This document shows positions 1 through 63,162 of a stretch of DNA of 64,000 nucleotides, piece by piece. The DNA is from Lenzites betulinus (Eukaryota > Basidiomycota > Agaricomycetes > Polyporales > Polyporaceae): NCBI GenBank assembly GCA_022264855.1, contig JABYQU010000005.1:1116001-1180000 (forward strand). Reading direction: 5' to 3'. The position numbers and the translations under genes are program-made. Under the pieces are notes generated by a model. That model did no database searches. It saw only the letters and a program-made list of their open reading frames with translations, and was not told where the DNA came from. How positions within the stretch are numbered: position 1 is the first letter of the stretch; the number at the start of each line of letters is the position of its first letter.

Positions 1-1440
1 AGCACGATTTCCACGATCCGTGTGGATTTCAACCATGTGCTGACTTGTCCTGTTGTAGAACCCGGTGACCCTTCTACGCAGGTCCCTACCGTCGTATCAA
101 CGCCTACTACAACGAGGGTGACTATCGGCACCACGCCTTCTTCAACCACCGTCAGAAGTACGTCTCTTCCGCCTGCCACGGCTCCGCTCAGCACGAATAC
201 GTCTGCTCCTCCCGAAGGCATCACTACTGCGCCCATTTCGAACATGCCGACACAAGTTACCAGCGCTCCTGCAGATACTGGCACGGTTGACGGACATCCT
301 TCCTCGCCTGCGTCTGGCGCTCCTGCTACTTCGGTTGCTGCTCCGACAAACTCGAGCCACTCATCCGCAACCCCTACCACTGGCCTACCCGGGGCCCCCC
401 TTTCGAGCGCTACGTTATCTACGTGGTCTTCAACCGTCCCAAGATCGCACTCATCTGCACTTGTACCTCAGGCTGCTTCCAGCTCCCAAACTGCGAGCTC
501 CGCCGGATCCTCGCCGTCGCAACACCCCGAAGGAGGACACGGGCTTTCTCCTAAGGCCTTCATCCCCGTCTCTGTCGCCATAGTCGTCGTGGTACTCACC
601 GCAGTCCTGGGCGCACTGATCCTATGCATGCGTCGACGCCGGCGCCGCCGAGCGAGCGCTCTTCCTGCTGGTCTCTCGAAGCAAGCGGTTTCCCAGAGTG
701 CTGAAGACGACCCCTATACGCGCCTCGAGAAGAGGAACAGGACTATTGTAGATGAACGCCCCGCCCACTTCGGAAAACATTCTCTGCAAGAGGAATCTGC
801 TCTCGCTTCGGAGGGCTGTGCTTCGCTATGGACGTCGGACTTGCCTATTGCACCCACAAGTAACCAAACCCGCACAGAAACATCCGGAGCAAATGTCTAC
901 GTTCCCCTGCCGCAAGCTGTGTCTGGGGATCAAGTCGGAGGCGACACGGATCCATTATATCAAGCTTCGCTATCGTCGGGTGGAGCCCCATTGCTACCTC
1001 GCACGCACCCTGTCAATGGCGAGGAGACATTCTCGTCATACGGAGGAGCTCGGTCGAACACCGAGACGCCGCCTTCCACCGAGACGACCGTCCAACCCGG
1101 AGGGATGGTGGCGGATGCGCGTCGCCTCTCGCTCGGAACTGTGGCGTTTGTCGGAGGTCCCGCTGTTCTTTCGGAGACATCAGAGAAGACAGCTGCGTCG
1201 GGGCGGCACCCTTCGGCCAACGCGACGTCGCCGCCGCCACAGCCTCCCTCTGTCCCCGCTCGCGCCGAAACGCTATTGACATCCACCTTGTCACCATCTT
1301 CCTTACGTCGTCCAAGGTTCGTGACGGTGCTGATGGAGGTGAACGAGGGCGACTCCGAGGAAGACGACCAGTTGCCGCCCTATCAGCCTCGATCGCAGAG
1401 TGCGAGTCCTGTTTCGCACCGCGATCATGATGGGCCGTAA
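1..1440 (+). CDS. CFEM-cluster membrane protein, C-terminal part (5' end outside window)
   Basis: The frame is open from base 1, so the extracellular domain lies outside the window. What is visible is a long Ser/Thr/Pro-rich stalk (to about residue 175), one membrane span (about residues 180-202 of the visible part) with the core IPVSVAIVVVVLTAVLGALI, a poly-Arg stop-transfer run, and a cytoplasmic tail of about 270 residues. The tail ends in an acidic stretch followed by LPPYQPRS, a PPxY motif close to the C terminus. The same architecture and end motif occur in the CFEM proteins at 2.6, 51.6, 53.5 and 60.2 kb, so I infer a CFEM domain upstream. The identity of the missing N terminus is inference; the stalk, span and tail are seen directly. 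Confidence 0.75.
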   Translation, partial: STISTIRVDFNHVLTCPVVEPGDPSTQVPTVVSTPTTTRVTIGTTPSSTTVRSTSLPPATAPLSTNTSAPPEGITTAPISNMPTQVTSAPADTGTVDGHPSSPASGAPATSVAAPTNSSHSSATPTTGLPGAPLSSATLSTWSSTVPRSHSSALVPQAASSSQTASSAGSSPSQHPEGGHGLSPKAFIPVSVAIVVVVLTAVLGALILCMRRRRRRRASALPAGLSKQAVSQSAEDDPYTRLEKRNRTIVDERPAHFGKHSLQEESALASEGCASLWTSDLPIAPTSNQTRTETSGANVYVPLPQAVSGDQVGGDTDPLYQASLSSGGAPLLPRTHPVNGEETFSSYGGARSNTETPPSTETTVQPGGMVADARRLSLGTVAFVGGPAVLSETSEKTAASGRHPSANATSPPPQPPSVPARAETLLTSTLSPSSLRRPRFVTVLMEVNEGDSEEDDQLPPYQPRSQSASPVSHRDHDGP

Positions 1441-2565
1441 GAGAGTTTGCAAGGTCCGTCGGTCTCGGCTTGAGTGAGTATTTTATTGGCAATCCCTGAA
1501 GACATCGTGCTGATAAATAATGGCAGTGGTGTACATATGAATACTACATGTACCTCAGCACTGGGGAGAAAGATCATCGAGTCGGAGTTCCCAAAGTTCT
1601 GTGCTCTGATACGTGCCCACTATTCAGGTTCTTCGGTATCATCTGACGCGAATGTTGTATGGCATAGGAATGTCTGTAACTAATTTTATCTTTTGGAAGT
1701 GTCGCTGCCAGGTGTTGGAGCATGGTCTGGAGATCTGAAGTCCTTGCAGCTGCCGGGACTCGGCGGATGCGCACAGTTGGAGCCGCTTTCAAGTTTTCGC
1801 ACGGCGTTGCTTTCTTGTACAGTAACACAATATCGTCCGACGAAATATGTACAGATCATATGTCACTGTGCGCATCGTATGTTTCTTCCTCTAACACGAA
1901 TCTTGGGCTGACCAATCGACGATGTCTTTTTAAGGACTGTCTGGACACGCTGTGCTATCCCGGGATGGCACTGCGAGGCTGCGGTTACAACGGTCCAGGC
2001 GGTCCAAAATCCCAGTGATCCGCGAGCCTCATCGTCTGCCTTTGGCGCCGCTCTGCTACTTATGACACCCAAAGGACTGTGTTGGGTATATCAACACTGC
2101 GCATTGCTAGGCCCGGAACGGGGTTTGAGGCATGGCTGGGCGCGCAACCATAGGTGAGCAGTACTTCTTTGATCATGAGCCCGACTCTTGACAAGTAGTG
2201 AATCTGACCGCTGCAATGATGTTACCTCGTATCAGGCTGTTGGACAACATGCCAATGGAACATCCCGTACCCGCATCGCATATTGCTGCCGTCGTGCTCT
2301 TGGGACTTGCCGGCTCCACCAAGGTAACGTTGTCAGTTAGAACTGGAATGCGATATGTGCCGTTTAAGTGAAAGTCCTCTTCAGATGAGCCCCACCGTGC
2401 GACAGGAGTACGGCATGCTGCCATCCCCTTATTATACCAGGCACGTAAGCTTCGTGGAAAGCTTCATATATGTGAGTGAGGATACGGGATACTTATCACT
2501 CTCTTCTGCTTCCGCCGCACCCCATCCAAGCGCTCCTTCCTGTGCTCCGCGTCCGATCCTTCGAC
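1441..2565. other. Intergenic region without a supported gene
   Basis: No convincing gene. A stretch at 2216-2323 encodes a hydrophobic, signal-peptide-like segment (AAVVLLGLAG) followed by a GTAACG donor-like site. It lies upstream of the TATA-like box at 2432 and does not join cleanly to the CFEM exons, so it is not included in the next gene. Confidence 0.4.
2432..2438 (+). promoter_or_regulatory. TATA-like box of the 2.6 kb CFEM gene
   Basis: The sequence TTATACC lies about 130 bases before the first in-frame ATG (2566). The paralogous gene at 51.6 kb has the same heptamer, also upstream of its ATG (53017-53023, minus strand). Confidence 0.4.
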
Positions 2566-3981
2566 ATGCGCCTTCAGCGTCCCGCGATCGACGTAGAAAC
2601 GATGCATCTCCCGGCGCAGATGTGGCGTAAGGCAGTCAGCGATGGATTTTGGGACAGTTTCCCGGCGTGTGTCGATCCGTGCATGGATTCCACTATAGAA
2701 AATACCGGATGTAACAGGTGCGTTCGTTCAGCCCTGGCGTACTTGCGTGGATAGCTGTTGTGATACACCGGCACATAGTCTCATCTCTCAGTGGCTCGTT
2801 GCTTACAGGCCGTTTTAGCGAGGACGTCGCTTGTCTATGCCTCGATACAACATTTGTCGATGATCTGTTGAATTGTATCGAGCGCTCGTGCAGCCCAGAC
2901 AATATCGAATCAGCGGCGACAGCCTTGGATCGGCAATGTAGCGGCGCACTGGACGATGATACCCCAAGTACGCCATATTCTTTCTATCTGGCATGAACGT
3001 GTAGTTCTGTCTATGTTCACGCAAACAACTCATCGACACAATGGTAGCCTCGGAGACGGATACATTTCAAACCCGAACCAGCACTCCGATGCCGACTTTG
3101 TCATCCTCAACGGTCCAGGCGACATCTACATCAATATCAGCATCGTCATCCACTAGCACAGGGGGGACCCTCTCCAGCAGTTCCTCGGTGTCTACTTCCC
3201 CCTCTTCCTCCTCCTCATCGACAACGCCACGTTTTACCAGTACTCTTCCGTCGCTATCCAGCAGCCGCGCTCCAAATCAAGCAGGAAATTCTACAAGTGC
3301 CCCAACCAGCTCGCGAAGTTCATTCGCACCAGTGAGCACCAGCTCGAAAGGGGCCTCGCAGTCGGTCTCCTCGCCCTCTCCGGGCTCAGCCGCCAGCACG
3401 CTTCCCGCCGTTACATCGGACCAACACACCACCACGATCATAGCAGCGATCTCATCAGTATGCGGGCTACTCTTCCTCATCTGCCTCGTACTAGGCGCAC
3501 GCTGGCTGTACAAACGCAGACGCCGCGTGAAGGGTAACTTCGCGCGCGACGATCTTTCACGCTTAGCGCCCCTCTCTCCTTTAATCACAGGTATGGACTT
3601 CGCCATGCCAGGTAGAATATAATAATTGATGCTACTGGGACAGAAGACACTACTTCCACGATTCCACGCTCGATCATAGATATCTCAAAATCGACAACTG
3701 CAGAGAGTCCTCGAACGGAGCTTTCCTCAGAGGCATTATCTAGTACAGGTGCCGATATTAGTACACTCCTCTCCGTCACCACTCCGTTCTCGCAGTCTCC
3801 GCTCACGTCTCAGCATATCCCGGGTGAAGAGCTCAAGCAACTTCACGAGGGCACGCCGATCGGACGCGTTTCCTCCCTTGCTCAAAACCCCGCGCGTCCA
3901 ACACAAGAATCATCTGCGTCCCGAGTATATTGGGGGCACGGGAACGAGGAGGAACCGCCACCATATGCACCGCGGGAGTAG
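2566..3981 (+). CDS. CFEM-domain single-pass membrane protein with C-terminal PPPY
   Basis: Exons about 2566-2710, 2809-2967, 3048-3590 and 3644-3981. From the in-frame ATG at 2620 they sum to 376 codons; ATGs at 2566 and 2602 are equally possible. The CFEM domain has all eight cysteines in the order FPAC, DPC, TG-C (codon split by intron 1), VACLC, LLNC, RSC and RQC. A Ser/Thr stalk of about 120 residues follows, then one span (IIAAISSVCGLLFLICLVLG), an RRRR stop-transfer and a cytoplasmic tail ending EEEPPPYAPRE. CFEM domains of fungi are extracellular eight-Cys modules, some of which bind haem. No signal peptide is visible in front of the domain. The role (surface sensing, haem or adhesion) cannot be told from sequence. 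Confidence 0.75.
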
Positions 3982-4200
3982 GATTCGGATTGTAAGCGCG
4001 GTGGCGTGCCCATGTGCGTCCATCGCGTCGTCATCTCGTTCATCTCCGTACTCATATGCGAGTGACAGGGAGAGATGGAGTCCATTTCAGAGTGGGTGGT
4101 AAGAAGTCTGAGCTCGGTAGTAAGATGAGCCCTGACTTGCGACCGCCTCTCACCACGGAGGTGAGACGATCTAGTATTGTTGATCCGTACATGCCCTCCA

Positions 4201-4207
4201 ATATATA
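4201..4207 (+). promoter_or_regulatory. TATA box of the 4.3 kb CFEM-GPI gene
   Basis: ATATATAG lies about 75 bases upstream of the ATG at 4278, a normal spacing for a fungal TATA box and a short 5' leader. Confidence 0.45.
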
Positions 4208-4277
4208 GTAGTCCATACATCCTCATCTTCTCCTCCCCCAGAATTTCTAAGGCTCGTGGACAAGACAAGTACTACGC

Positions 4278-5268
4278 ATGGCAACTGGTGCATCTCTACT
4301 CCTTTTCGTGGCGACCGCTGTCTCAGGCATGGAAGGCACCCTCTTCGGTATCCCTGGAAACATCTCTCAGTGCACAGTCGGTTGCATAGCGGCCTCTGGG
4401 TCTCACGACGGTTGTAGACCCCCGTACGTCTGCCTGATAATCTTCTTGGTACGCACTAACACAATCGCTAACAACCTTCCATACTATGGCTCGTCTCCCG
4501 TTCACAAACAGAATTGATACGAAATGCGTGTGCGGAAACCCATTGTTTACACAAGTAACGCTTCCATGCGTCGAGGATCAATGCACGGCGGACGACGTGG
4601 ATACGATCCTGCAGCTATACGTCGACTTCTGCGTGTCCTCTTCGTGTGAGAGGTGCTTCCTGTACTTGAGAGACTGAGGATTCTGACATCACTGACGAGC
4701 AGCAGTACTGGCCGCTGCACCCGGAATCACCGCTGTGACCGGAAGCTTCCATGTTCCGCCGTTTACATTTCCTCTTTCGATTATCCCACTTCCTTCGTTC
4801 CCACCACATCTGATTGGAACCTCCACGAACAATGCAACTGCGATGGGCGTTACAGCAACGACATCGCACCGGAGCTCCATCCAGGTCTCTGGGAGCGCGT
4901 CCGCCCCGATGTCTACGTCCCAACCGGCATCGGTATTATTCCATACTTCTCACACCACGCCACCGATGGATCCTTCCTTTAACACACCCTCTGCGGTCAG
5001 CACAGAGAGCGCGACATCAGTTATTTCTAAGCCAGGCCAGGAGTCCGGGATCACCTTGACATTCCCTTCTGCTGGAATGAGTTCTCCGTCTAGCTCGGAG
5101 CCTACAGTTGACGTCACGCAGAGCCTCGTTACATACTCTCCTATGCCCAGCAGCACAAACAAGGGCGATTCCGCAGGTCGAAATGCAGCAATTCGGAGAA
5201 ACTTCCAGATGACGACTCTCGCACTTTTCAGCATCCTGGCCATGCAGGTTGTCCCGCTCTTCTTCTGA
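4278..5268 (+). CDS. CFEM-domain GPI-anchored surface protein
   Basis: Exons 4278-4423, 4512-4645 and 4703-5268 (281 codons; a 4706 acceptor is also possible). The product has a signal peptide (MATGASLLLFVATAVSG). The CFEM domain has eight cysteines: SQC, VGC, DGC, TKC, VCG, LPC, DQC and DFC. A Ser/Thr/Pro-rich region follows, ending in a short hydrophobic C terminus (ALFSILAMQVVPLFF) after a basic spacer, typical of a GPI-attachment signal. Intron 1 falls between Cys3 and Cys4 of the domain, as in every CFEM gene of this window. It is the third of a tandem plus-strand trio. CFEM-GPI proteins are wall or membrane exposed, and some bind haem. I see the usual Asp before Cys4 of haem-type domains (IDTKC), which is suggestive only. 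Confidence 0.8.
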
Positions 5269-5739
5269 TCAAGGCACCTTCAGATACGTATCGATACATT
5301 ACCATACATGCATACATACATACATGTACTATCCTGCATCTTTGCGAATCCTCCATCTCCTTCAGCAGCCTTCAACGCGCACGAACATCCGTATGTCTAG
5401 AGCGTTCATCTAGGCGCGATCACGTGGTCGCGCCGCGGCTTAACAACTCGCGACATCCCAGGCGGAGCTGACGCGATGTGAGATTCATGCTTCCAGAGAG
5501 GCACTAGCAGAAGAAAGAAGGGTGTAGGGCGCTCCGCTGTACGCCGGGCGACATGTACACGTAAGTGACGGTGATGCGCTGCGCAAGTTCGCATGCATCA
5601 CGACGTCTGTATCTGCCGCGCACGATGACAGGTATGATGGAAGTGGGCCCGCGATATCGTTGATCAGTATCTATCTACGTGCGGTGTGTTTGGCTAACAC
5701 TGCAGTCCTCCAGGTTCGCTTCAACACGTACAATGTACC
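5269..5739. other. Convergent intergenic gap with a short CATA repeat
   Basis: This gap lies between convergent genes. It holds a short (CATA)n tract near 5305-5326. I see no gene. Confidence 0.5.
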
Positions 5740-7590
5740 TCAACTCGTCTCCGGGTCCGACATCGGTGAAGACACGGACGCAGGCTCTGACGTCGGGAGC
5801 ACCTGCGCCTCCTCCACTAGAAGCGTCCGCGCCTCCGTGAGCTCTGAGAGGAGCGCGGCGAGCCTCTCCCGCCTCGATGCGTACTCTACCTCTTCCGCGC
5901 GGCGCCTTGCCTCTGCCCGCTCCCTCCCTCTAGCCCTGCGCGTGGGCTTTTCCGGGGCACTTTGAGGGGAGGCCGTCTGAGGGTCATGAGAGCCTGACAA
6001 CGCGGAAAGACGAGATAGGTGTAGCGCATCGTGCGTTCTGAGCTGCCCCTCAAGCACGCGGATGAGACGCGTGAGCTCGACATGCCGCCGAGCACCAGCG
6101 TACGCGAGCGATGGTGGTGCTGAGCTGTAGGGCGGGAGTACAGTGTGGTGGGACATCCCCGATGGCGAGGACGCTCGCTCCAGGGCCTCGGGGTTGTCTG
6201 TGGACTGATTGATTGCGTACGAGGGCGGCAGGGAAACTCTTGAGCCTGGTACAGTGTTAGCGTTGGTAAATGCGCGTAGCTGGGGAGAGGTCGGGACTGA
6301 CCATGCGCATTGGGAATACTCCCCAAAGGACCATGTCCATCGGGTGCGGAATGTCTCATGGTGTTGCCTAAAGGAAATTAGCACACGTGTGACTGGTGCT
6401 CCTATCTCAGGATGCACACCTTGTGAATCTAAGTGTTGTGCAAACATCGCATACGCGGCGGGCGGTGACCGAACGTAGACGGACTCCGACCCAGGAAGTT
6501 CATCTACGTGACACACTGCGTCAGCCTCTTGCTTCACAAGCATACACAGATCCCAGCTAGTACTACGTACCGAAGCAGTCTTCTGAAGATGAGCGCGACG
6601 CACTGTGCGAGTGCGCGAATAAGGCAGGGAAGATGCCCAGCCCATCCTTGTCGTCGCCCCCACCTCCAGCCGCGCCGTTACGCTTCTCTTGCCGTCCGCG
6701 TAGCCTACGACGTCGCAGCACGAACGCGGCTACTGCTAAGGCGACAAGCGCGAGACCTCCGACGATTCCGCCCACAAGCGCGCCGATGCGGGAGGTTGTG
6801 CTGAACGATGCGGTCTGAGCGTCGCTCACGGCGGAAGTAGGAGTGACGGATAAAGTATTTGTGGGGAGAAGGCTCGTCGCCTGTCCGGTCGATAGGTCAA
6901 GGGACGTCGCTGCGGATGAGGTCTGCCAGAGATGTGTCAGTCGGCGGTGCAGGTTTATGACAGAACAGAAGAGCGCACCGGATCTGTGGCTACATCCGTA
7001 ACGTACTGCGCAAAGTCGAACGCGTATAAACTGTTCGTCGCGCCGGCAGAGTAGATACTGAGAGTGTGCTCCTCATTCGGAATCCCAGTCAGGCTGAACA
7101 TCCGTACAGTGTACATGGGCATCCCATTCCACAACGTAGGAAACTGCTTCACCGGCTTGAACACGCCATCATTGGAAATAGGCTTGCCCGTGGGGTCCGT
7201 GTCGAGGGTGAACGTCAGGTTCGTCTGGGCCAACGTAGAGGGTGTGGGCCGCGCAATGACGAAGAAGACGTCTATCGCGGTGCCGGTGAAGTTCATCGTG
7301 ATCGTGCGTTCCCCGGTCCCGCTCGTGATGGAGTGCCATGTCCCGGAGAAGACTTGAGAGGAATTGACAAGGGACGAATTGACAGCACAAGCATCGCAGT
7401 TAGCACCTTGGACCCAGCCGTCCGCGGGCGTGTAGATGGGCTTTGTGCCCGTCGCGCTGTCTCCGTGCTCATCGTCGATCGTCCGATCCACAAGGATGGC
7501 GGTGGCACAGTGGAGGACACCGAGGATCGTCGCGAGCGCGCACAAGCTAGAGAGGCTGAAGCCCAGGAGACAGGTTTTGCGAGACGACAT
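5740..7590 (-). CDS. Single-pass surface protein, uncharacterised fungal family, copy A
   Basis: Exons 7590-6979, 6922-6571, 6503-6420, 6367-6302 and 6245-5740 (539 codons, all phases consistent). The N terminus is a signal peptide. An extracellular domain of about 180 residues follows, with the family signatures TIDDEHGD, YTPADGW, NCDAC, GTWHSIT, MNFTGTAI and TNLTFTLD. A short Ser/Thr stalk leads to one span (IGALVGGIVGGLALVALAVAAFVL), an RRRR stop-transfer and a cytoplasmic tail. The tail carries an LPPYSSAPPS motif (PPxY) and then a basic, Arg/Glu-rich predicted coiled coil containing RRERLAALLSELTEAR. I recognise the family as common in Agaricomycetes genomes but know no assigned function. 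It is a tandem partner of the 8.2 kb gene. Confidence 0.8.
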
Positions 7591-8218
7591 CCGGGGAGGC
7601 TCTAAGCATGCGCCATTAGCTGGATGTTATGAGGGTATCGACGTGACGCACCGCTCTATTAATGCATAGGGCGCTCTACCCTTTTCCTCGGTGGCAATGA
7701 TGCAGGCACCGAGGACTCGAGGACGAGTGATGTGGTCATAGATCAAGTTGACGACGCTAGTTGCATAAAACAGGGCCGCAGTGGAGCCCCACTAGTAACT
7801 ACACTAGCTGCATGGTGCACCAGATAACATCAGTGGTCGAATGTCATCCTTTACGTTTAACGGGAACGTGATGACTTTCGGATGGCGGTCCGTTACAGAA
7901 GGGTGAGAGTGAGGCGGTGCAAGAGCTCGGTAGCCGATATTGAGACCTCGCCGCCGTTGTTGGCGAGATATGGTTGTTAATCCCGTGGGGGAGGTGGATA
8001 GCTCTTCTGCTCAATAAGATGTGCCGATCAAACGATACATTCCGAACACCCCGCAGCGTTCTACGATCCCTTTGTATAGAGTGCGTGCGCCAGCATCCGA
8101 GCGGGAAGGACGGTGAGATTGGACTCCAGGTGGCAGGTGACGGTGCTGCCAGACTTTTGATCTCCGCGAAGGGAACGTCCCCGAGTCCTCCGAGCCCGTT
8201 CGCACACGCACACGCACA
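7591..8218. other. Intergenic gap between the two tandem surface-protein genes
   Basis: No gene seen. It should contain the promoter of copy A, but no motif stands out. Confidence 0.5.
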
Positions 8219-10168
8219 TCACCTCAACTGCTGATCCAACACTGGTGCAGGCGCGGGGTCGATCCCACGCCCAGAACCAGATAGGGCCGGTGCCTCCTCC
8301 GCGAGCAGTGCCCGCGCCTCTGTGAGCTCTGAGAGCAGTGCGGCGAGCCGTTCCCGCCGCGACCTGTGCTCCTCTTCCTCGGCACGTCGACGCGTTTCCG
8401 CGCGACCCCTGGGTCTGGCTCTGCGTGCGGCTTTTTCTGGGCGGGCTTTCGGAGGAGTCGCTGTTTCCCTACCGGGCTGGGTTTGAACTTGAGGTGGGAG
8501 GGAACGTGACAGATGGAGTGCGTCGTGCATCGCGAGCTGCCCCTCCAGGACGCGGATGAGGCGCGTGAGCTCGACGTAGCGCCGCGCACCGGCATGCGCG
8601 AGAGACGGGGGCGCCGAGGAGTATGGTGGGAGCGCAGTATGATGCGACATTCCCGATGGCGATGATGCTCGTTGCGGGGCGTATGAGGGCGGAAGAGAGA
8701 TTCTTGAGGCTGAAGATGATGTGTAAGTGTTTCATGAAAACAGCGTCGGATTGTGTCATGAGTCACCATGCGCGCCGGAGATGTTCCCAAGGGTATCTTG
8801 CCTGTCCGTGGGGTAGGGCGCGGAAGATCTCCTAAGATGGGTTCCGTTGCCTATGGCGTCTCTATTAGCTAAAGTAGATCGTAATGGTGATTCCGACAGT
8901 GTTCACCTTGAGCATAAGAGTGTCGCGCGAACACTGCATAGACCGCGGAAGGAGACTGAGCAACTGCGGACGTCATCTGCGGCTCGGGAACCACCGCTCC
9001 ATCTGTGTCAGACACTGCTTCAGTCACCCACGTCGATTCCAAAGAAGATGATGATACGCACTCAGGGATCCTTCCGAGGATGCGCGGGACTCGCTATGCG
9101 TTTGCGCAAACAGCGCAGGGAGGATGGTTAGGCCGTCCGCGCCGTCGTCAGTCGCGTTACCACCGATCCACGTGCGAGGCCTTTCCCGCAACCGGCGGCG
9201 CCAGAGCAAAAACGCAACTACACCTACGACGACAATGGCAAGCCCGCCGAGCGCTCCTCCCACGATCGCGCCGATATTGGGACCATGTAAGGGCACACTG
9301 GGCGGGCCCTCCGAAGGCGTCGGACTCGGGAGGGCAGGAGTGGCGATCAGAGTGTTGCTTACCGAGGAGGTGGAAGAGGTAGTAGAAAATGAGGTCGTGA
9401 GTGGAGCAGTCCCGTCTCCGGTGCTCGACGAGCTCGAGATAGCGCGAGTTGGCGCAGAAAAGCTGCTTAAAGTTGGAGCATCGAGCGTCGCTGCCGACGA
9501 AGCCTACGTGCGAAGGGCTGTCTGAGGAACAGATGGTCAAACAAGATCGAAAAGCGTACCTGGGTCGTGCCCGTCGCACCGTCCTCGTCCGCGACGTACT
9601 GCACATAATCAAACGCGTACAGATTGTTTGTCGGGCCAGCAGAGCTGATTTTCAGTGTATGCTCGCGGTTTGGAAGGCCGCTCACACCGAACATCCGTGC
9701 ACTGTACACAGGCTCTCCGTCTATCAGCGCGGGAAACTGGAGTGTTGTGTCTGTGTCGGCGTCTGGTCCTTCCTCAGGATCAAGGGTGAATGTCAGGTTT
9801 GTCTGGGCCAACGTGGACGGCATGGGGCGAGCGATCACGAAGAAGGCGTTTACCGCAACGCCCGTGAAAGTGACCGTGATTGTACGCTCGTCCGTTCCGC
9901 TCGTAATGGAGTGCCATGTTCCGTCCAGTACCTGGGAAGCGTCGATGAGGGATGAGTCAATGGAACAGCCAGTGCAAGTCGCTCCTTGGGACCAGCCGTC
10001 CGCGGGCGTGTATATGGGCTTTGTACCCGTAATGATGTCTCCTTGCTCATCGTCGATGGTGCGGGTGACTTGGACAGCGACGGCGGCGCGAGAGAAGCTA
10101 AGAATGGTAGAGAATACAAAAACATCAGAGAGGCTGAGGCTCGGGAGAAGACTTTTGGGAGATGGCAT
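8219..10168 (-). CDS. Single-pass surface protein, uncharacterised fungal family, copy B
   Basis: Exons 10168-9560, 9503-9062, 9014-8907 and 8709-8219 (549 codons). The signal peptide and ectodomain share the signatures of copy A (TIDDEQGD, YTPADGW, GTWHSIT, VTFTGVAV, TNLTFTLD). The stalk is Ser/Thr-rich, the span is IGAIVGGALGGLAIVVVGVVAF, and the tail contains LPPYSSAPPS followed by the basic coiled-coil segment RLIRVLEGQL...RRERLAALLSELTEAR. Copy A has one extra 66-base exon between exons 3 and 5. The matching stretch here (8831-8767) is only 65 bases and would break the frame, so I left it out of the model. The close similarity and tandem arrangement indicate recent duplication. Confidence 0.78.
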
Positions 10169-11110
10169 ACGGGAAAGTTTCGAGCGGGTGGCAATCCGAC
10201 GTTATAAGGGTGCCGACGTGCGAATCTTCCGCGTGGAGAAGTCATCGACACGGCGAGTTTAAGGAGCACCGGCACAAATCGCCCGACAATCCCGCTGTGT
10301 TGTATGATGCGGTTCCGCGCTTTCACTCGGTGGCAATGCACTCAGAGATTAAGTACACGGCGCTCGTGCCAAATAAAGGACCGCAGCGCCCCGCTGTACT
10401 TGGAGCGGCTTGCCCGTTGCTACCGCGAGAGCCAGTCCACGGAGTCGTTGTTTCAGTGCTATAGATGGTCATAGTAGTGTCAAGACTCAGGACGAGGGAG
10501 AAAATGGCCAACGACTTATACGGTACGGCGTTCAAGGTCACCTTATAGAGGGCCAATTTGAACCAGTGCTAGTGACACGTTTAAATTTGCACGTTAGCAA
10601 GAGTGAGTGAGTGAGTGAGTGAGTGAGTGAGTGAGTGATGATTTGGACCGCATGTACGTTTACAACCCCGATCCGGTCGGTGCTAATCTATGTAAAATAA
10701 ACACACAATATACTGGACCCGTAGTACTAGTAACGTAGCGCCTGAATACCTTTGCTCATCGGACTTTTAATATGTGCTTACTTTGATTACAGCTCTCTAG
10801 ATCTCAGATATATCTATGAGGACATAATGGAGATGTCGAATGCACGCGCAAGGTCGAATTATTACACTCACTCATTCACTTACTCTGATACATCTGCGCG
10901 TCCATACCATACGACTCCTGCGGCTGCTATAAATTATGTCCTGCTATCTAGCTTAGATTCTAGCTTCCACGGTGATTAAAGAGGACGTACACGAGGCGTC
11001 TAGATCTGATGACGGCGAGACTCATGCGCTTACTTCGTACCCACTACCTCCCTCACACCTCCTCCCTCACGCCCTCTCTCTAAGACTCTTAGATCGTGAA
11101 CATCGATTCC
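10169..11110. other. Intergenic region with GAGT microsatellite
   Basis: Divergent gap between copy B and the first BTB gene. I see no gene. It is AT-richer than its surroundings around 10,680-10,960. Confidence 0.5.
10600..10638. repeat. (GAGT)n microsatellite
   Basis: About nine perfect tandem copies of the tetranucleotide GAGT. Confidence 0.9.
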
Positions 11111-43480: not shown

Positions 43481-43548
43481 AGGTAAGCTTCTACTACTCG
43501 CCCTCTGCGCGGGCGTGTGTACTGACCACCGCCAGTCATTCGTTCATC

Positions 43549-51575: not shown

Positions 51576-52918
51576 CTAATCTCCTACACGCGAAAGGCAA
51601 CTCACCGACTTTGTCCCTCGAGTCTCGAGCCTGGGGGACGCCCTGACAGGACCACGACTGAACGGACCGCCCACGGCCGCCGGGGGCCCCTCCCGCTCCT
51701 CGTACGCCGGCAGGTACTCCGATTCACCATGCGCGGGCGCACCCAGCTCGCCCCCGGGCCGCGCCGCCGTTCCAGGAAGAGACGTGCTAGAAAGCAGCGC
51801 AAGCAGACGTTCGCCCATCGGCCACGGCAACACGATGACCTGCGATCGCGGGTCCGCGCTCGTTTCCGCCCCCGACGCAATCACAATAGGCGGACTCCCG
51901 TCGGCGGCCGTAGCCGCAGAGGCTGGATACGAGGGCGCGGGCCCTGTGTGGGCGCCCGCCTCTCCGGAGGGCTGCGCGGCGGCGGTATCTGCTGGCGTCC
52001 GGTTAGGCAGCCCGGGGGGAGAAGGCACGAACGCAGCCTCTTGAACGGGTGATGTAGGACTCGGAGCGCTCGATGCGAGGAATCCGGATTCGCCCTTATG
52101 GACACTGCTCGCAATGGGACTCGGGTAGCCGTAGAATCGTGTTATGGACGGAGAACGCGTCTCGCTGGATCGTCCTGCAGATCGGGCGCGGCGTCGGGCG
52201 GTGTACCTACAGAGGCATATGATCGCGGCGACGACTATGGCTGTGGCGGCAATGGGGAGAGCAATGACGAGTGCTGCGGGCTTGTGTGTACCCCCAGATA
52301 GTTGTGCTCCAGACGACGGTTGGGTCGACACGGATGATGGTTGAGTCAACACAGACGACGATTGGGTCGACACCAAAGACGATTGAGTCGACAACGATGA
52401 TGGTTGAATCGACCCTGATGACGATGATGCTATAGAGGAGGAGATGAAGGAGCTGGTTGAGCTTCGGGTTTGCCTTGCACTTGACGTGGAGCTCAGAAAT
52501 CCTGTTGAGCAGGTGTATCAGCGTAGGCCCCGGCCCGCCTCGAAGGCCGACTCCATCCGCTCCCGACGCCAACAAAAGCGTCGTAAAGGACCGGTCACTC
52601 ACCTGAATCAGCGCCGCATCGTGCAGTCTCCGCCTGGACGAGGCTGTCCAACTCGTCCCCAGTGCAGAGCGTCTGCAGGCATGCGAGTCCCTTGTAGACG
52701 GGCATGTCCGCACACGTGCACAGGTCACCGCTGTTCCGAACAAACGACTGATCAGTACACACTCCTGTATACAGGCGATGTTGAGGAAGCCGGTGCAGAG
52801 TCTGAGTAGTAGATGCTCACATGAACGTATCGACGCCGATGCTGCAGTTTGACAGCGATATCTGGTCGTTCTTTCCCGGGCAGGACATAGTGCAGACCAC
52901 ACCGGATGTTTCAGCCAT
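51576..52918 (-). CDS. CFEM-domain single-pass membrane protein with LPAY tail
   Basis: Exons 52918-52821, 52730-52603 and 52501-51576 (383 codons, phases consistent). The protein begins MAETSGVVCTMSC, so the first CFEM cysteine is residue 9 and no signal peptide is visible. The CFEM domain continues LSNC, intron, GDLCTC, LACLQTLC and ARCG. A Ser/Thr/Gln stalk with STQSS-type repeats leads to a span (ALVIALPIAATAIVVAAIICL) and an RRRAR stop-transfer. The cytoplasmic tail carries QVIVLPWPMGERLLALL and then SEYLPAYEERE, an LPxY-type PY motif, about 35 residues before the end. The tail module is shared with the 53.5 kb neighbour. Confidence 0.82.
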
Positions 52919-53023: not shown

Positions 53024-53049
53024 GGAGCCCGGGCCGAGCAGGAGACACA

Positions 53050-53270: not shown

Positions 53271-53468
53271 TGCTCTGATATATGATGGACAGGTACCGCT
53301 CGACGTCACTACCGCTTAGACTATGACACTTGCACGCCTGACAGGGCTCTCTGAGCGGACTATTCAGGTTTGAGTCGAACACTGATTTCACAAACACGCG
53401 CGGGAACCCACAAAATCCGTATACCCTGGCTAGGATAGCAAGGATGCTGCAACCGGAAGAAAGGCCGC

Positions 53469-54960
53469 TCACGAGCCCCCCTCCCGCTCTTCGTACGCTG
53501 GGAGATAGTCCGATTGAGCAGTCGAGCCTTCCTGTGGTGGCGCAACAGGCGTACTGGCGAGCAACGCTAGTAGGCGTTCCCCCATCGGCCACGGAAGCAC
53601 GATGACCTGGTCTCTTGGGTTTGAGGCAGCCGCTGGCGCCGTTGACATATTCCTATCGACCTCCGTAGCAGATCGATAGGAGGGCACCCGTTCCACGTGC
53701 GTGCTGCTCTCCCCTGGGGGCTGCTCCGGGATGATCTTGGCGGTGCAGACGTCTGGTGCCTGGGTAGATGCAATGCTCGGAGGACGTTCCACTGGGGCTT
53801 CAACGGGCTGCGAAGGAACGTTGCGTACGCCCGAACTAGTAGCCCTCGCGACGGAGATGGGAAGGCCATGGAATCGTGATAGCGGTGAGGAAGCATCGCC
53901 GCTGCTTGTATGTCGCGCCCGACGCCGGCGTGCTGCACGTTTGTAGAGGACGATGGCAAGCCCTATGACAGCCGTGGCGACGAGAGGGAGCGCGATGGCG
54001 AGTGCCGCGGACGCATCCCCGTGATGTTCTGCAGGGACAGCACTTGGGATACTAGCAGCACTTAGAGTACTAGTCGCACTTGGAGTACTAGCCGCACTTG
54101 GAGTACTGGTCGGACTCGGAGTACTGGTCGGACTCGGAGTGCTAGTATTACTACTGGATGACTGGGTGACAGACGGCGACTGAGAAGATACGGATCGCAA
54201 GGTTGCAAAGGAGAAGGCGAAAGATGGACTAGTGGTGGTTGCAGTACTGCTTGATCCAGCGTCAGAAATTGTGCTATGTGGCGCGATCGAGGGCGTGGAG
54301 GAGGTGGGCGGGGCGCCTTGGACGGGTATGATGGGGAGGAGCGGACCGGAGTCAGGGGAAGAGGATGGGCTCCCGGATGTTGTTGTTCTTTCGGCTTCCG
54401 ACGTCTGGGCAGTCTGTTGGCTTGTCAGTATATGCAACACTGAAAGTGCTTTCGTCCCGAGTCGGTGCTTACCGACGGGGATTTGGTGGGCTTCTGCGAT
54501 TCTTTCAGCGTAGTGGGACCTGCATACACCAAACTTGAAAAGAACGAGTAGGTAGCTGCTCATCAAATGCATCAGCGTGTGTCCCAAGAAGTGCCTTCCG
54601 TTCTCAACGTGCATGGAGGCGTCGCGAGGATGCCACGCACCCCCATCGGCGACGTCGCGTCGCATATTCGTGCCCTCGACGAGGCTGGTCATTGGTGTAT
54701 CTGCGGTGTCGGGGACGGTCCATAAATCTACGGAGGGAATCTCGTCGCTGAGGTCCGGCGTGTGCGACGCAGACCTGCTCCTAAATGCGACTCGTCAGTA
54801 TGCTGACCTCCCCCAAGCCACGGTCTGCATATGCGGTGCCGATGGCCGTGTCGGAAGGGAAAATAGTGTTGGAGCTCACAACGTAGGGGCACGGCCGTCA
54901 CAGCTCGACATTTTCACGGGGTCGTTGGTGTCCTCGCGGTGTATGTGGCAGTCGTAGACT
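53469..54960 (-). pseudogene. CFEM-family membrane protein with degenerate ectodomain
   Basis: The membrane and cytoplasmic parts are intact. They comprise a Ser/Thr/Pro stalk with TPSPTS repeats, a span (ALAIALPLVATAVIGLAIVLY), an RRRRAR stop-transfer, QVIVLPWPMGERLLALL and a C-terminal SDYLPAYEEREGGS. The ectodomain aligns with that of the 51.6 kb gene but has lost most cysteines. The first exon keeps only two (YDC, MSSC), and the second reads RSASHTPDLSDE where a CxC pair is expected. No ATG precedes the first Cys; the first available one is the Met of MSSC. The last exons (54413-53469, preceded by PTTLKESQKPTKSPS) are well defined. It could be a cysteine-poor working protein or a decaying gene. 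Confidence 0.6.
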
Positions 54961-57252: not shown

Positions 57253-58484
57253 GAGGCCAGACGACGTCGACGCTTCGCGTGCTATCTGATGTACTCGACT
57301 TGGAGGTACCGTGCTGCACCCGGCTCTAATTTATTTATACCCGCGGCATGTACTAGCCATTCCTTATCCCAGCCGTTCCTTTGCCTGTACTATGAACTAG
57401 ATACTATATCTACATTTAGACCACGGTCGACAAATGGTACAATGCCAATGCCTTTGCGATGGTTATTGGATTGACTGTATACTGGGCGCCGCTGACTCAG
57501 ATGACTGGTCGCCGTCCCCCGCACCATAAACTGATGCTGATCCTACCGTCTAACAGGATGTGTTTTTGGTGCCGTATGCCAAGTGATGTCGCGCCGACTA
57601 CACGAGCAGCGGTGCACCCCAGTCGAGGCCTTCCGCGACGATTCGCGGGATTTCCCTCTAATATGGCGAGAATCAGCCACGGTGTCGACCGCTAGGCAAA
57701 TGAACACCGGCGTGCTATGGGTTTGTTTTGGTCTGTCAAGCGACGCGATTGGTAGCGTATGTACTGCTTGACGGGGTATGCGGCGCACGTTATCTAATAA
57801 TAGCTACAGGTAGCTAGCACGATATAGCGCTCGCTCCATCGCTAGATAAAATTTCTTTACTCTCTCACACTTTGACCCAGTCATCGACCAAAACATCCGT
57901 TGCAACGTATCAGGAAAATAAGACCCTTTTATCTATCACAGCACAGAACGATGTTCTCGCGCACACATCCATGTCATGAGCGGTAGACAGGTACCGCGAA
58001 GCTTATCACAAAGAGACATGTCTACAGCAACTAGGCACGGCGTATAGGCCTATCGTGTGTACAAACTCACTTCTAGTCTCTTCACGGTCAGCTAATTGAT
58101 ACCCAAACCGTTCATAATTCACACAGCACCTGAAGCCTCTTCTGCGCCCGCCCAGTACTTGCCTACATTTACACTCTGTAGCCCTGCCACATTAAACCTC
58201 ACGTCGCCTCAGAAACGAGGTGCGAGCTAGGTAGTATGTTCATCGCCACCGGAACAGGCTTCTCTTCCTATTCTTCAGCCGCGAACCCTCCGAAAGCAGC
58301 CCATCCCGAAGATGATGGTCTCCCACACCGCGCCCTGCGCAGACCGCTGCTTGTCAGATCGATGGCACGCATGTGCACCCACCCGGGGCCCTAGGACTTA
58401 ACGCGGACGTGCGAGCCATACATCAAATCCTCTTCGCAACCACTCCGCATGTTCCCCACCGGCTCCCCTCCTCTGCATCCGGGT
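57253..58484. other. Intergenic region, nothing recognised
   Basis: Moderately AT-rich; no supported gene, RNA or repeat. The ATG at 58449, in frame with the next gene, lies at its end. Confidence 0.5.
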
Positions 58485-60066
58485 ATGCGTCTGCGTCTTC
58501 AAGCACGCCCGCCGTCGCTCCGCGCACTTTCCACCCTCGCCTCATTGGTTCTGCACTTGCCGCTGCTACCACAAACGCACGTCCACGCATCCCCCACCCC
58601 GCAGAACATCACCGTCGACGACACCCTCGGCAGCGCCGGCGCCGCGGGCGGGTACGCGCTCGTCTACGAGCCGCCCGGCGTCTGGAGCGCAGGGCAGAAC
58701 TGCTCCGCGTGCGAGGCGACGCCGCACATCGACAGGGCGCAGGTGCGCGGCGGGACGTGGCACGACGTGAGCTACCTCGCGGACGCCCCCCCGCCCGCGC
58801 CCATCAGCGCCACGCTCACGTTCGACGGTCAGTACATGCCTCCCTGCTCGCGTGCCGCGCGTTGGGTATTCATGCATTCATGTTTTGGACGGGTGGCGCA
58901 CATGTACAGGCACCGCGGTGTACGCGTACATGGTCCTCACGCGCGCGTTCGAGGACCCGAACGGGAACACGGACCTCGCGTTCCTCATCGACGGCGCGCC
59001 TGCGGGCGCGTTCGCGCTCCCCCCGGACGGGGACACGGCGTTCCGGTACGATGTGCCCGTGTATGCGAACGCGTCGCTCGTGCGCGGGACGCACACGTTC
59101 ACGATCGTCGTGGGGCGGCCCGGGGGGATGAGTGCGCTTGCGTTGCTGGACTACGTCGTGTTTACGTGCGTGCAAGTTTGTGCTTTCGTATTCGGCTGTA
59201 GCGGATTTGGGCGCGCGGCTTATGGTCACGGTGGTGTTTACAGACAGGAAGTGGATCTGGACACTCCACCGAGTATGCCCCAGCAAACGGGCAGTGCACA
59301 ACACCCTTCGAGCGCGAAGCCCGTCGTCGCGCTCTCCGTCACCCTCGGCCTCCTCGTGCTCTTCACAGCAGCCGCGTTCCTCTGGCTCTGGACGAAACGG
59401 CGCGCCCGGCCCTTGGCCGCACCAGGCGTCTCCCATGCTGCGCCTGCAGCCAAAGTCGATCTGGACGACGAGGAGCCCCACGCACGTATAGCACACGTCC
59501 TGCGCCCCCGCGCACAACCCGCGCAGCCCGACGCACACCTCCCCTACCCCTACACCCTCCCGCGCCGGCCCTCAGCACCCTGGCCCCCGTTCACGCGCGC
59601 CGACTCGCCCCCAGGCTCGTCTGCGTCCGGCTTTACGTGGGTGCCGGAGCGGAGACAGTACGTCGCGACGAAGGGGACGCCGCGTGCCAGTGATCCTTCC
59701 CCGGGTCTACCGACATCCGCGATGTCCGTGTCTACGTCGACGGAGGTGGTGGCGGCAGGGCGGAAGGACACGTACGGCCTGCCGCCCATCTCGCAGCACG
59801 AGCCCAGCACGCTTGATTCGAACTCGCGTGACGGCGAGATGGCTAACTCGGACGTGTACGTGCAGAGCCATGCAGCGGGTGGTGCGGTGTCGGTTTCGTC
59901 CGTGGCCGACGACGAGGCGGGCGTGGACGCAGCTCCGCACGTGGACACCGTCGAGTCGCGCCCTCGTGTTGTGGCGGAGGTGGAGGTGCATGATGCAGCT
60001 CCGGAGGCGCAGGACAGTGCGGAAAATGTCGATGACGGGCCACCGCCGTACGCGCCGCACGAGTGA
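58485..60066 (+). CDS. Single-pass surface protein, uncharacterised fungal family, copy C
   Basis: Exons 58485-58827, 58910-59165 and 59244-60066 (473 codons, phases consistent). The ATG at 58449 would add 12 residues; 58485 gives the better signal peptide. Family signatures: VDDTLGSAG, YEPPGVWSAGQNCSACE, GTWHDVSYL, DGTAVYAYMVL, DLAFLIDG, YDVPVYANASL and HTFTIVVG. The span is VVALSVTLGLLVLFTAAAFLWLW with a KRRAR stop-transfer. The tail of about 230 residues ends DDGPPPYAPHE, practically the same C terminus as the unrelated-ectodomain CFEM protein at 2.6 kb (EEEPPPYAPRE). It lacks the basic coiled coil of copies A and B. Confidence 0.82.
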
Positions 60067-60222
60067 TATGAGCGCCGTCTGGAGTTCCGCTGCATAGATC
60101 TCCTGATGTAGTTACGGGCCTTCGTAGGTGTACGATCAGCACGACGATATACACTGTATCTACTGTATCTCCACCAGTACTCAGGTGACATCATAAACGG
60201 CAGTCCCTAACGTCCATCGTGT

Positions 60223-61977
60223 CTATGTACGAGGCGTATACGCCGGCAGCGGCTCTGAGCTATCATCCATATCGCTAGTGTCGCCCTCAGTCCCTGTTGC
60301 CGGCGGCGGCGTCGCAGCGAGGAACGTCAAGAACAGCTCTCGGAGCGGCGCCGGTATTCCCGCGAGGGTGGACTCGTCCGTCTCTGGGTCCGCGGAGGGA
60401 GGTACTAGTCCAGGGAGTGCGGGCAGCTCCCTGGCCGTCGTGGGCGGAGAAGACGGGACACGAGGAGATGGGGCTGCAGCCCGACGGACGAGGCGTTCGC
60501 GTTCGGGCACTCCAAGTCCCGGCGGAGGCGCCACGTAACCTCCGTGTAAGTCGAGGGATCCGGCTGGCGAGTACACTAATTGTGTGCCAGGACTCGCACG
60601 ATGCTCATGGAGCGCTTCCTGCGGGTGCACTTTGGCATCAAGCACACGATTCCGGGAGGGCAAGGGGCGATCCCTGGAGATCATATTCCTTGGGTCCGCT
60701 AGCACGTCGCTTTGGGAACATCTGCCGTCGTTCGCCAGCGTGCTGTAGCTTCGTCCGGGGGCGTCAGAGCCAGAGCCGAGCGGTGATATGGGCGAATGAG
60801 GATCGTCGGAGGGAGGTGACTCCAAGTCTGGGTTCGACACGTCATTTGCCCCATGCTCGTCGTGGCTAAAAGAAACGGCGGACCGGTCCTTGGCTGCGAC
60901 CCCAGGGCTGTAGTCTCCCTCACGCCGGTACCGTGACGCATCCAATGGAGAGAAGGGGGAGGGGGGACTGGTCACGGTACGCATAACCGCGGGTTGAATG
61001 GGCACCATTGACACTAAGATCCGTCGTCTCTTCAAGTTCCTCTTCAACCGGCGGCAGAAGAGGAGCGCGGACATCACTGAGAAGATCACTCCTCCGACGA
61101 CGGCGAGGCCGATGATGAGACTCCTCGGAGTGTGCGTGGCGGGATCGGACTCGGATGTGCGTGCGTCTGTGCTGTTACTATACATGGCAGTTGGTGGGGT
61201 CAGAGTACTGAGGCCGTCGATTGCGCTGACTGACGTCGCGCTGATAGGTGGACCAAGGGAAGTAGATGGAAGGAGGGTGCCGGATTGGCGGGTGCTCAGG
61301 ATGGACTGCGTGGGTGGATCTGTCGTCTGCGGGAAGCTCGTAGGATCCTCGGAGCCCCGCATGCGCGGCGTCGCAACTGATACTCGTGTAATAGGAGGGG
61401 TGGTTATGGTCTGCAGCGTGGAGGAGAGCATAGGTGAAGAAGAGTCTTGGAGGGTCGAGGTGATGCTACTGGCGCGAGGCGGCGTGTTCTGCACGCCAGT
61501 AGTTCCTGGTGATTCCGACACCACTGTCGACGGCGAGAGGGGCGATGAAGGGGGCTGAGAAGTTGGCTGGATTGTCTGGGAGCCTATCCGCGCGACATAT
61601 GGCCACAGGAAATAGTAGGTATACTTATTGTCAGCACACGATTCTCCTGCGAACCCGATGCACAGAGCGGCACTCACTCCGAAGGGGTAGGGATGTACAA
61701 CGTGCAGCTTCATTATTGACCAGGTTGAAGAAGTCCTGGCTCGAGCACAGCGCCTGCAAACACGCCGGGTCCTGCACAAACACCGGGGACTGCGAGCACG
61801 GGCAGACTTGCGCGCTGCAATGACACGGCAAAGGGTATCAGAGGCACCATCGCACGGGCTATATGGAGAATACCGCACTCACATGGCAATGTTCATGTTG
61901 CCACACTCAGGCTGCGTGAAAATGTGAGTTGCGTCATCGCAGACGTACTGACAATATTGCAGGGAAGGGAGAGTCAT
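60223..61977 (-). CDS. CFEM-domain single-pass membrane protein with LPAY tail
   Basis: Exons 61977-61883, 61814-61678 and 61583-60223 (530 codons, phases consistent). It starts MTLPSLQYCQYVC; no signal peptide precedes the domain. CFEM cysteines: QYC, YVC, PEC, intron, QVCPC, PACLQALC and ARC. A long Ser/Thr/Pro stalk of about 150 residues leads to a span (SLIIGLAVVGGVIFSVMSALLFC), an RRLKRNLKRRR stop-transfer and a cytoplasmic tail of about 250 residues. The tail contains LRELFLTFLAAT, weakly like the ERLLALLAST module of its paralogues, and ends SSEPLPAYTPRT. An intron of 94 bases (61584-61677) is preferred over a 31-base alternative. Confidence 0.8.
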
Positions 61978-62093
61978 GGCGTGCAAGCTCTTTGTGAGTT
62001 AGGAGGATCACGAGAGGATCCTTGACGTGAGCGGGATGCGAGGTCGTTCGGACGCGCGGGTCATGGTAATGCGCTTGTCTGTGCGCCCGGTGG

Positions 62094-62100
62094 GTTATAT
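62094..62100 (-). promoter_or_regulatory. TATA-like box of the 60.2 kb CFEM gene
   Basis: ATATAAC on the minus strand, 117 bases upstream of the chosen ATG (61977). The space is too short for an extra signal-peptide exon plus intron unless one starts at the weak ATG near 62,063. Confidence 0.45.
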
Positions 62101-62561
62101 GGAAAATGGGGTCCGGGTGCCCGGTACACGCCACAGCCTGAGCCGGGCAGTGCGCTCAGGCGGAGCGCGACTTTATCACCAGAATCCATCCCTGCGTAGT
62201 GTCAGCAATCACCATAAAGACACGGCTTGGAAGTCGTTGACGAGCACTCACCATGGGGCGCCGTACCTAACGAAAGCGCATCTTGCAATGGAAGCTGCGG
62301 CGGTGCACGGCGCGCGCACCGTGTGTACTGCGCCAGCCGCCAATCCCCTCCGCCTGTCCACAGCACTCACACTCACGTAGTAACCGCACCTGTTCCAGCG
62401 CACGCTGCATATCCGAGGGCATGTCTCTGATCAACGCACGCGATTCCATTACTGCGTGCTTCCGATCTGTACACCGTGGGCGTCTTGTAAGCGTACGCCT
62501 GAGCACAGCGCTGCCCGACGCCAGCTCCGTCGTCCTTCGGAGCCCCGGCTTTTCCCATCTC
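62101..62561. other. Intergenic gap between tandem CFEM genes
   Basis: Frames here (for example minus 62,267-62,653) overlap the neighbouring gene's last exon and show no domain. No gene called. Confidence 0.45.
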
Positions 62562-63162
62562 CTAGTAACCAACGAACGCGGCGTGCGCCGTCCCTTCAAT
62601 CTGGATGGCACGCTGCGCGCGACGCCGACGATGGGCGTAGATAATCGATCCAACGACCAGGATCCCGAGCGCGATTGGGAACAGGAACACGGAAGACGTG
62701 TACGCGCCGCTCGGAGGAGCGAGCTGGTCCACTCCGTCGAAGGACGGCATGAGGCCCCGGCGGACGAGAGCTTCTCCGGTTTCCACGGGCACGTCGGTCG
62801 TTACGGTGGTCGGGACTAAATTGTGATGCCGCCAGCTATGTTAGCTCTTACTCGATATCATGCCATGAGCGGACAAGATGCTCACAGACACTGGGGCCGC
62901 ACCGCGCGATTTCGGCTGTGACTATGGCGTCGAAGTCTGCTGGAGAGCATAGCGACTGGAGACAGTCGTTCTGCTTGATGGGGGATTCCGCGCAAGTGCA
63001 ATCCCGAGCGCTGGGGTTTGCGGTTGTTAGAATAACACTGACAACACAGAGAGAACGAGGAGCCGGGACTCACATAAAGTCCTCGCCCTGGGAGCACGTG
63101 GACGGGAAGAAGGACAGCCGCCCGACATGGTTACAGAAGTAGTCGCATTCCGTGACTGACAT
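62562..63162 (-). CDS. CFEM-domain single-pass membrane protein, short tail
   Basis: Exons 63162-63074, 63010-62886 and 62815-62562 (155 codons, phases consistent). It starts MSVTECDYFC with no signal peptide. The CFEM cysteines are TEC, YFC, STC, intron, RDCTC, NDCLQSLC and ARC, in the same arrangement as the tandem 60.2 kb gene. A linker of about 35 residues leads to one span (SVFLFPIALGILVVGSIIYA), RRRR and a tail of about 20 residues without a PY motif. A leader intron ending at ...GTTCCAG just before the ATG is likely. It is the most compact membrane-span CFEM protein in the window. Confidence 0.78.

What the first reader, a model, noticed from the sequence alone, without database searches (positions are those of the whole stretch)
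1..63162. Expanded surface-protein locus whose members share cytoplasmic PY motifs
Seen: seven single-pass proteins of two unrelated ectodomain types end or nearly end in PPxY/LPxY. These are LPPYQPRS (1.4 kb), PPPYAPRE (4.0 kb), LPAYEERE (51.6 kb), LPAYEEREGGS (53.5 kb), LPAYTPRT (60.2 kb), PPPYAPHE (60.1 kb), and LPPYSSAPPS in both copies at 5.7 and 8.2 kb. PPxY and LPxY are established ligands of WW domains in Rsp5/Nedd4-type ubiquitin ligases. Inference: a set of surface receptors or scavengers with one common turnover or signalling handle, converged on or exchanged between CFEM and non-CFEM families.
Basis: partly seen in the sequence, partly recalled or inferred. Interest (0 to 1): 0.8.

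Follow-up and report, generated by a model that had tools for sequence, protein, structure and literature searches.

The report
Surface proteins ending in ubiquitin-ligase tags
In a wood-decay mushroom, single-pass surface proteins of at least three unrelated kinds, including the cluster in this window, often end in the same short PPxY signal that ubiquitin ligases of the Rsp5 type are known to bind, which suggests one shared handle for controlling many surface proteins.

Summary
The PY motifs are real. The window is Lenzites betulinus (Polyporales). Eight of nine single-pass proteins modelled here carry [PL]PxY in the tail (shuffle mean 0.84); four have it within 10 residues of the end (0.04). 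Corrections: in J1/J2 it is internal, beside a second PPSY; in C3 it is 41 residues from the end; C6 has none.

It is not special to this locus. A stalk-plus-membrane-helix query had 50 matches in the genome. Of 23 readable tails, 19 hold [PL]PxY and 16 have it within six residues of the end (0.2 expected within ten). Known ectodomains: J family, CFEM, glutaminase A. In glutaminase A the terminal motif recurs across Polyporales and Agaricales: 26 of 35 hits, 26 of 29 with a membrane helix.

One Rsp5-like C2-WW3-HECT gene was found.

Best reading: a shared C-terminal handle for Rsp5-dependent ubiquitylation and sorting, kept or regained on non-homologous tails. Tail exchange between CFEM and J genes is not supported. 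WW binding, and conservation of the window's CFEM tails in other species, are untested. Six searches of an open-access library found no report of it in basidiomycetes.

The parts
59..1440 (+). C1: last exon of a CFEM + TM protein (model begins 330 bases before the window); LPPYQPRS at 1372-1395
   Evidence: CFEM 5e-9
2602..3981 (+). C2: CFEM + TM protein ending PPPYAPRE* (3955-3978); start uncertain, an in-frame ATG lies 13 codons earlier
   Evidence: CFEM 5.9e-12
5740..7590 (-). J1: N-terminal hydrophobic leader, non-CFEM ectodomain, TM, tail with PPSY (6228) and LPPYSSAPPS (6138), coil-like C-terminus (by eye)
8219..10168 (-). J2: paralogue of J1 (tails 61% identical); PPSY (8692) and LPPYSSAPPS (8632); in public data as P0002 with a different middle part
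51576..52918 (-). C3: eight-cysteine CFEM-like + TM; LPAYEERE at 51713, 41 residues from the end
53469..54692 (-). C4: tail paralogue of C3 (38%), no recognisable CFEM; ends LPAYEEREGGS*
58449..60066 (+). J3: divergent member of the J ectodomain superfamily + TM; ends PPPYAPHE* (60040-60063)
60223..61977 (-). C5: CFEM-like + TM; ends LPAYTPRT* (60249-60226); equals public model P0003
62562..63162 (-). C6: CFEM-like + TM, 22-residue tail, no PY and no lysine (counter-example)
4278..5268 (+). G1: CFEM-like protein with hydrophobic leader and no cytoplasmic tail (natural control without PY)
   Evidence: C-terminal part read by eye

Best explanation
The tails carry ligands for group I WW domains ([PL]PxY), often at the very C-terminus, that recruit the Rsp5/Nedd4-type ubiquitin ligase. 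Rsp5 then ubiquitylates lysines in the tail (or a partner in the same membrane) and so sets internalisation and endosomal/vacuolar sorting of the surface protein. The handle sits on unrelated ectodomains (CFEM, the J family, glutaminase A) and survives while much of the rest of the tail changes. SHOWN: motif, position, excess over chance, recurrence in glutaminase A tails of other species, the Rsp5-like gene. INFERRED: topology, WW binding, ubiquitylation, turnover.
For: Terminal enrichment in a sample of 23 non-window tails: within 10 residues 16 observed, 0.2 expected; anywhere 19 against 2.62; reversed motif 0 of 23; [PL]PxF 0 of 23 within 45 residues and 1 of 23 anywhere. Window tails 4 of 9 within 10 residues against 0.04. 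Glutaminase A: 26 of 29 hits with a TM end in [PL]PxY with at most four residues after it, though the query left out the last 13 residues that hold the motif. Paralogue islands in otherwise diverged tails: C0/C1 RFVTVLMEV..GD.E..DQ.PPYQPR, C3/C4 QVIVLPWPMGERLLALL..YLPAYEEREG, J3/L056/L060 DGPPPYAP. Rsp5-like gene with WW domains reading YYVDHNTRSTTW, YYVDHNTRTTTW, YFVDHNTKTTTW; best PDB match NEDD4L 9.2e-45, RSP5 also among the hits; HECT matches next to it. All 34 tails with a PY motif have at least one lysine. Precedent: yeast Sna3p binds Rsp5 through PPAY and needs it for sorting (PMC2171029, passages); Rcr1 binds Rsp5 through PY motifs (PMC5578492, passages).
Against: No binding, localisation or expression data. 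Tail models are mine: the predictor got 8 of 9 window tails right and failed on J2, and its codon scores were trained on those same genes. Only 23 of 50 matches could be read, and one of them (L061) is the locus from which the query was taken after its tail had been seen (without it 18 and 15 of 22). 4 of 23 tails have no PY (L080, L087, L053, L063), 3 have it only internally (L084, L089, L040). In glutaminase A the neighbouring coil is conserved too, so what is kept is a coil-plus-PY end, not the motif alone. No relative of the window's C5 tail was found elsewhere. In yeast Rsp5 is said not to be required for Rcr1's role in chitin deposition (PMC5578492), so a PY tail need not mean Rsp5-dependent function.
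Confidence: 0.65

Rival explanations
1. The PY-tailed proteins are adaptors, not cargo: like Rcr1 or Comm they bring the ligase to other membrane proteins.
For: Few lysines (1-6 in the 34 PY tails); PMC5578492 passages on Comm, PRRG and Rcr1/Rcr2.
Against: The handle on quite different ectodomains, one of them an enzyme domain, fits cargo better; all PY tails have lysine.
Confidence: 0.22
2. The motif is read by another WW protein or another domain, not Rsp5.
For: The genome has six further WW matches, five over the cut-off, and the search gives lower bounds; one reads LPPDWEIRHSREGAEVYFFNVKTDESTW (L017).
Against: Those six lack the DHNT segment that all three WW domains of the Rsp5-like gene have; that this segment marks PY binding is recalled. 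PMC2171029 states that Rsp5's WW domains are group I and bind PPXY (passage).
Confidence: 0.1
3. Tails or tail exons were exchanged within this locus between CFEM and J genes.
For: The strict DNA form for [LP]PxYxP[KNSRHQ]x-stop has 14 matches in the genome, three of them here, and these three are the only ones clearly ending a TM protein; the stop codons of J3 and C5 lie 156 bases apart.
Against: blastp of tails without their last 15 residues links no C tail to a J tail at 1e-3.
Confidence: 0.05
4. Chance or composition in proline-rich tails.
For: Tails are rich in P and S; a looser control, [PL]Px[SH] within 10 residues, is 2 of 23 against 0.93.
Against: 0 of 1000 shuffles reach the observed [PL]PxY counts; reversed and PxF controls lie near or below expectation in both sets.
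Confidence: 0.01

Closest known systems
Yeast Sna3p (PPAY) and Rcr1/Rcr2 with Rsp5
   Same: Fungal membrane proteins with cytoplasmic PY motifs that bind Rsp5 (PMC2171029 passages; PMC5578492 passages)
   Different: A few proteins, with the Sna3p motif more than 20 residues from its end; here the motif is often the last few residues, on several unrelated families
Comm / PRRG / Shisa / CYYR short TM proteins of animals
   Same: Short TM proteins with L/PPxY inside and, in some, cysteine-rich parts outside; Comm and two PRRG proteins lack a signal sequence, as the CFEM-TM proteins here seem to
   Different: No sequence relation tested; here long tails and large gene families
CFEM proteins (PF05730)
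   Same: Eight-cysteine ectodomain
   Different: C3, C5, C6 have no Pfam match; no paper in the library holds both CFEM and PY motif
Glutaminase A (PF16335)
   Same: Ectodomain of L061 and L058
   Different: Here followed by TM, coil and terminal PPxY

Membership tests
PY-motif clients or adaptors of Rsp5/Nedd4 | PPxY or LPxY on the cytoplasmic side of a membrane protein | tested here: met
   8 of 9 window proteins; cytoplasmic side inferred from the basic cluster after the TM
PY-motif clients or adaptors of Rsp5/Nedd4 | a Rsp5/Nedd4-type ligase with WW domains in the same organism | tested here: met
   the C2 part by eye
PY-motif clients or adaptors of Rsp5/Nedd4 | motif conserved among orthologues | tested here: inconclusive
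   present in 26 of 35 glutaminase A hits; window CFEM tails: no orthologue found with one search; paralogues keep it
PY-motif clients or adaptors of Rsp5/Nedd4 | WW binding and Rsp5-dependent ubiquitylation | not testable with these tools
   -
CFEM | Pfam PF05730 over cut-off | tested here: inconclusive
   C1, C2 yes; C3, C4, C5, C6 no
CFEM | eight conserved cysteines | tested here: met
   invariant in C1, C2, C3, C5, C6, G1; C4 not included, no such pattern seen
Glutaminase A (L061, L058; outside window) | PF16335 over cut-off | tested here: met
   1.6e-79 and 1.8e-68 on partial models

The most novel reading that the evidence does not exclude
In Agaricomycetes a C-terminal PPxY is the default last word of single-pass surface proteins, a positional tail code comparable in generality to a C-terminal retrieval or PDZ signal, read by one ligase (Rsp5), with accessory tail modules (a DSGxR box 19-48 residues from the C-terminus in some, a coil in others). 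It would tie turnover of a whole, quickly diversifying surface repertoire to one ubiquitin switch.
Probability: 0.45. Interest if true: 0.75.

Novelty: new variant of a known kind. Interest (0 to 1): 0.6.

Why it matters
Fungal surface repertoires expand and diverge, and how new members are plugged into existing trafficking is, as far as I know, open. A short terminal signal shared by non-homologous tails would be a simple answer, easy to test with one ligase and a handful of peptides. It would also give a sequence rule for finding surface proteins whose annotation stops before the membrane helix.

Tried and rejected
A profile search for SKG6 found nothing anywhere, controls included, and is uninformative. 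The structure prediction of the J1 first exon had mean pLDDT 40.4; its strands hint at an all-beta fold but that is not reliable, and no fold search was made. A J profile gave no PDB match. The homology search with the J1 ectodomain gave two proteins; the Trametes gibbosa one (P0001) is a shorter model without the PY region, so it says nothing about the tail. The C5 tail search returned only itself. Minus-strand loci were first read in the wrong orientation (nine loci) and corrected. A WW regular expression was badly written and found nothing; coordinates were used instead. The first automatic J1 model was replaced by hand-set introns. The tail predictor at first ran into neighbouring genes; limiting it to 1300 bases helped; the intron penalty was chosen on the window genes. 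The first signal-peptide scan used a threshold that would have missed the leaders of J2 and J3; it was repeated with a lower one, again without candidates.

Considered and rejected: NPxY or YxxPhi endocytic signals (by eye, not counted); tail exchange.

Full report
Source. The window lies at C54:1116001-1180000 of a 37.4-Mb genome, 24 kb from the end of that 1,204,046-base contig. Public proteins P0002 and P0003 of Lenzites betulinus lie on a contig of that length and match J2 and C5. The species is in Polyporales, Agaricomycetes.

Observation. A six-frame scan lists 40 [PL]PxY. Gene models were set by hand; C5 equals P0003. Nine single-pass proteins were modelled: C1-C6 and J1-J3. Eight carry [PL]PxY in the tail: four residues follow the motif in C2, C5 and J3, seven in C4, 18 in C1, 41 in C3, 128 in J1 and 133 in J2. 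C6 has none. Shuffling each tail 1000 times gives a mean of 0.04 within 10 residues (observed 4), 0.18 within 45 (6) and 0.84 anywhere (8); no shuffle reaches these. In the same nine tails the reversed motif occurs once (0.87 expected). Tail-less CFEM-like genes serve as natural controls: G1, two more with Pfam CFEM matches at about 44.8 kb and 50.4 kb on the minus strand, and one read by eye near 56.3-57.2 kb on the plus strand.

Beyond the locus, strict form. A DNA pattern for [LP]PxYxP[KNSRHQ]x-stop has 14 matches in the genome against 24 for the pattern read backwards; three of the 14 end in TGG, which is not a stop. C2, J3 and C5 are the only ones that clearly end a TM protein; one other (L033) has a TM-like stretch 766 bases upstream in another frame and is undecided. 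So by number this form is not enriched in the genome; its clustering here is what is notable.

Beyond the locus, wider form. A 48-residue query of stalk plus TM without a tail had 50 matches. It was taken from L061 after its tail had been seen. Tails of 23 were read: 13 in loci held from the J1 search and 10 fetched in order of rank among the rest. With the tail predictor (8 of 9 window tails right), 19 of 23 hold [PL]PxY and 16 have it with at most six residues after it; without L061, 18 and 15 of 22; in the ten fetched ones, 8 and 6. Shuffle means are 2.62 anywhere and 0.2 within 10 residues; the reversed motif is 0 of 23. Without PY: L080, L087, L053, L063. L080 is 95% identical to L081 over 67 residues and differs at the end.

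Ectodomains. Of the 13 sampled loci with upstream models, ten join the J superfamily by phmmer, two (L061, L058) are glutaminase A and one (L063) stands alone. The ten fetched tails have unknown ectodomains. C1 and C2 pass Pfam CFEM; C3, C5 and C6 have the eight cysteines, no Pfam match and a cluster of their own.

Conservation. The last protein search used residues 150-497 of the 510-residue L061 model, leaving out the final 13 with the motif. Of 41 hits, 35 (P0004-P0038) are of the glutaminase type. 26 of 35 end in [PL]PxY with at most four residues after it; all 26 are among the 29 with a TM. They include Trametes, Ganoderma, Grifola, Gelatoporia, Wolfiporia, Panus, Armillaria, Mycena and Agrocybe; Armillaria and Mycena are Agaricales. 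Three TM hits end otherwise (P0012, P0019, P0028) and six have no TM. One of those six, P0037, is the L. betulinus protein of the L058 locus; it ends before the membrane helix, whereas the DNA can be read on into TM and PPPEYTSTFGS. The query included most of the tail, so hits with tails were favoured. In an alignment of the 26 plus L061 and L058 the second P and the Y are invariant by construction, the first P is 0.96, and the coil LR.EVENLRR.M is about as conserved (mean over 141 tail columns 0.46). Of the six other hits, P0039, P0040, P0042 and P0043 have no PY in a recognised tail, P0041 has PPAY 29 residues from the end and P0044 ends LPPSYQPRD. Within the genome, C0 (C54:1102898) and C1 share RFVTVLMEV..GD.E..DQ.PPYQPR in tails with 61 of 177 aligned residues identical; C3/C4 and J3/L056/L060 behave alike.

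Tail kinds. (a) a DSGxR box starting 19-48 residues from the end in L082, L083, L086, L055 and L051 (5 of 23; shuffle mean 0.086; noticed first and counted afterwards), followed by PPxY; (b) coil then PPxY in L061, L058 and, by eye, L041, L044, L048; (c) acidic residues then [LP]P[PA]YxP[RH] in C1, C2, C5 and J3, by eye. blastp of tails without their last 15 residues joins no C tail to a J tail, which favours repeated gain or retention over exchange.

Reader. The genome search gave nine WW matches, a lower bound; three lie in one gene at C32:895175-895708(-), with HECT matches next to it and a C2-like stretch upstream by eye. Their DHNT segments are absent from the six others. HECT matches also lie on C1, C25 and C27; no WW match lies next to them. 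The best PDB match of the WW stretch is NEDD4L (9.2e-45), with RSP5 among the hits.

Mechanism. I hold Rsp5 recruitment and ubiquitin-dependent sorting most likely (0.65); binding and turnover are inferred. The 34 PY tails have 1-6 lysines; of six tails without PY, four (L080, L053, L063, C6) have none, but these are also the short ones.

Novelty. In one open-access library, no paper held CFEM + PY motif, PPxY + single-pass + basidiomycete (35), PPxY + Agaricomycetes (52) or PY motif + Basidiomycota (75); Rsp5 + basidiomycete + PY motif gave one cellulase review (53) and PPxY + mushroom + transmembrane one cancer paper (66), both seen as listings only. Subscription papers are mostly not held. 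PMC5578492 and PMC2171029 were seen as passages.

What the second check changed: the number of relevant literature searches (six, not ten), the status of L033, the disclosure about L061, and the note that invariance of P and Y in the 28-row alignment is by construction.

Noticed in passing
window C1 (-330), 2602, 52918, 61977, 63162: The CFEM-like proteins with a TM (C1, C2, C3, C5, C6) have no hydrophobic leader in their models, and no single-intron upstream exon within 900 bases supplies one (0 candidates in 5 of 5), while J1 and the tail-less G1 have a clear one; C5's public model starts at the same Met. They may insert by the internal membrane helix; Comm and two PRRG proteins also lack a signal sequence.
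   Followed up: partly
L082, L083, L086, L055, L051: A DSGxR box before the terminal PPxY in largely unrelated tails (5 of 23 against 0.086 by shuffle, counted after it was seen).
   Followed up: partly
L058 (C1:1684860), P0037: The public model of this glutaminase stops before the membrane helix; the DNA can be read on into TM, coil and PPPEYTSTFGS. Other hits without TM may be cut in the same way.
   Followed up: partly
L080 and L081 (C27, 9.5 kb apart): Tail starts 95% identical over 67 residues, but in the model of L080 the PPRY end is missing.
   Followed up: no
L056, L057 (C54:1185k, 1195k), L060 (C75:61.5k): J3-type genes outside the window, one on another contig, 78-95% alike among themselves in the tail, all with DGPPPYAP.
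   Followed up: partly
window 53469-54692: C4 keeps the C3-type tail but has no recognisable CFEM domain; perhaps a decayed or re-headed copy.
   Followed up: no
window 10600-10640: A run of about nine tandem four-base units (ACTC) upstream of J2.
   Followed up: no
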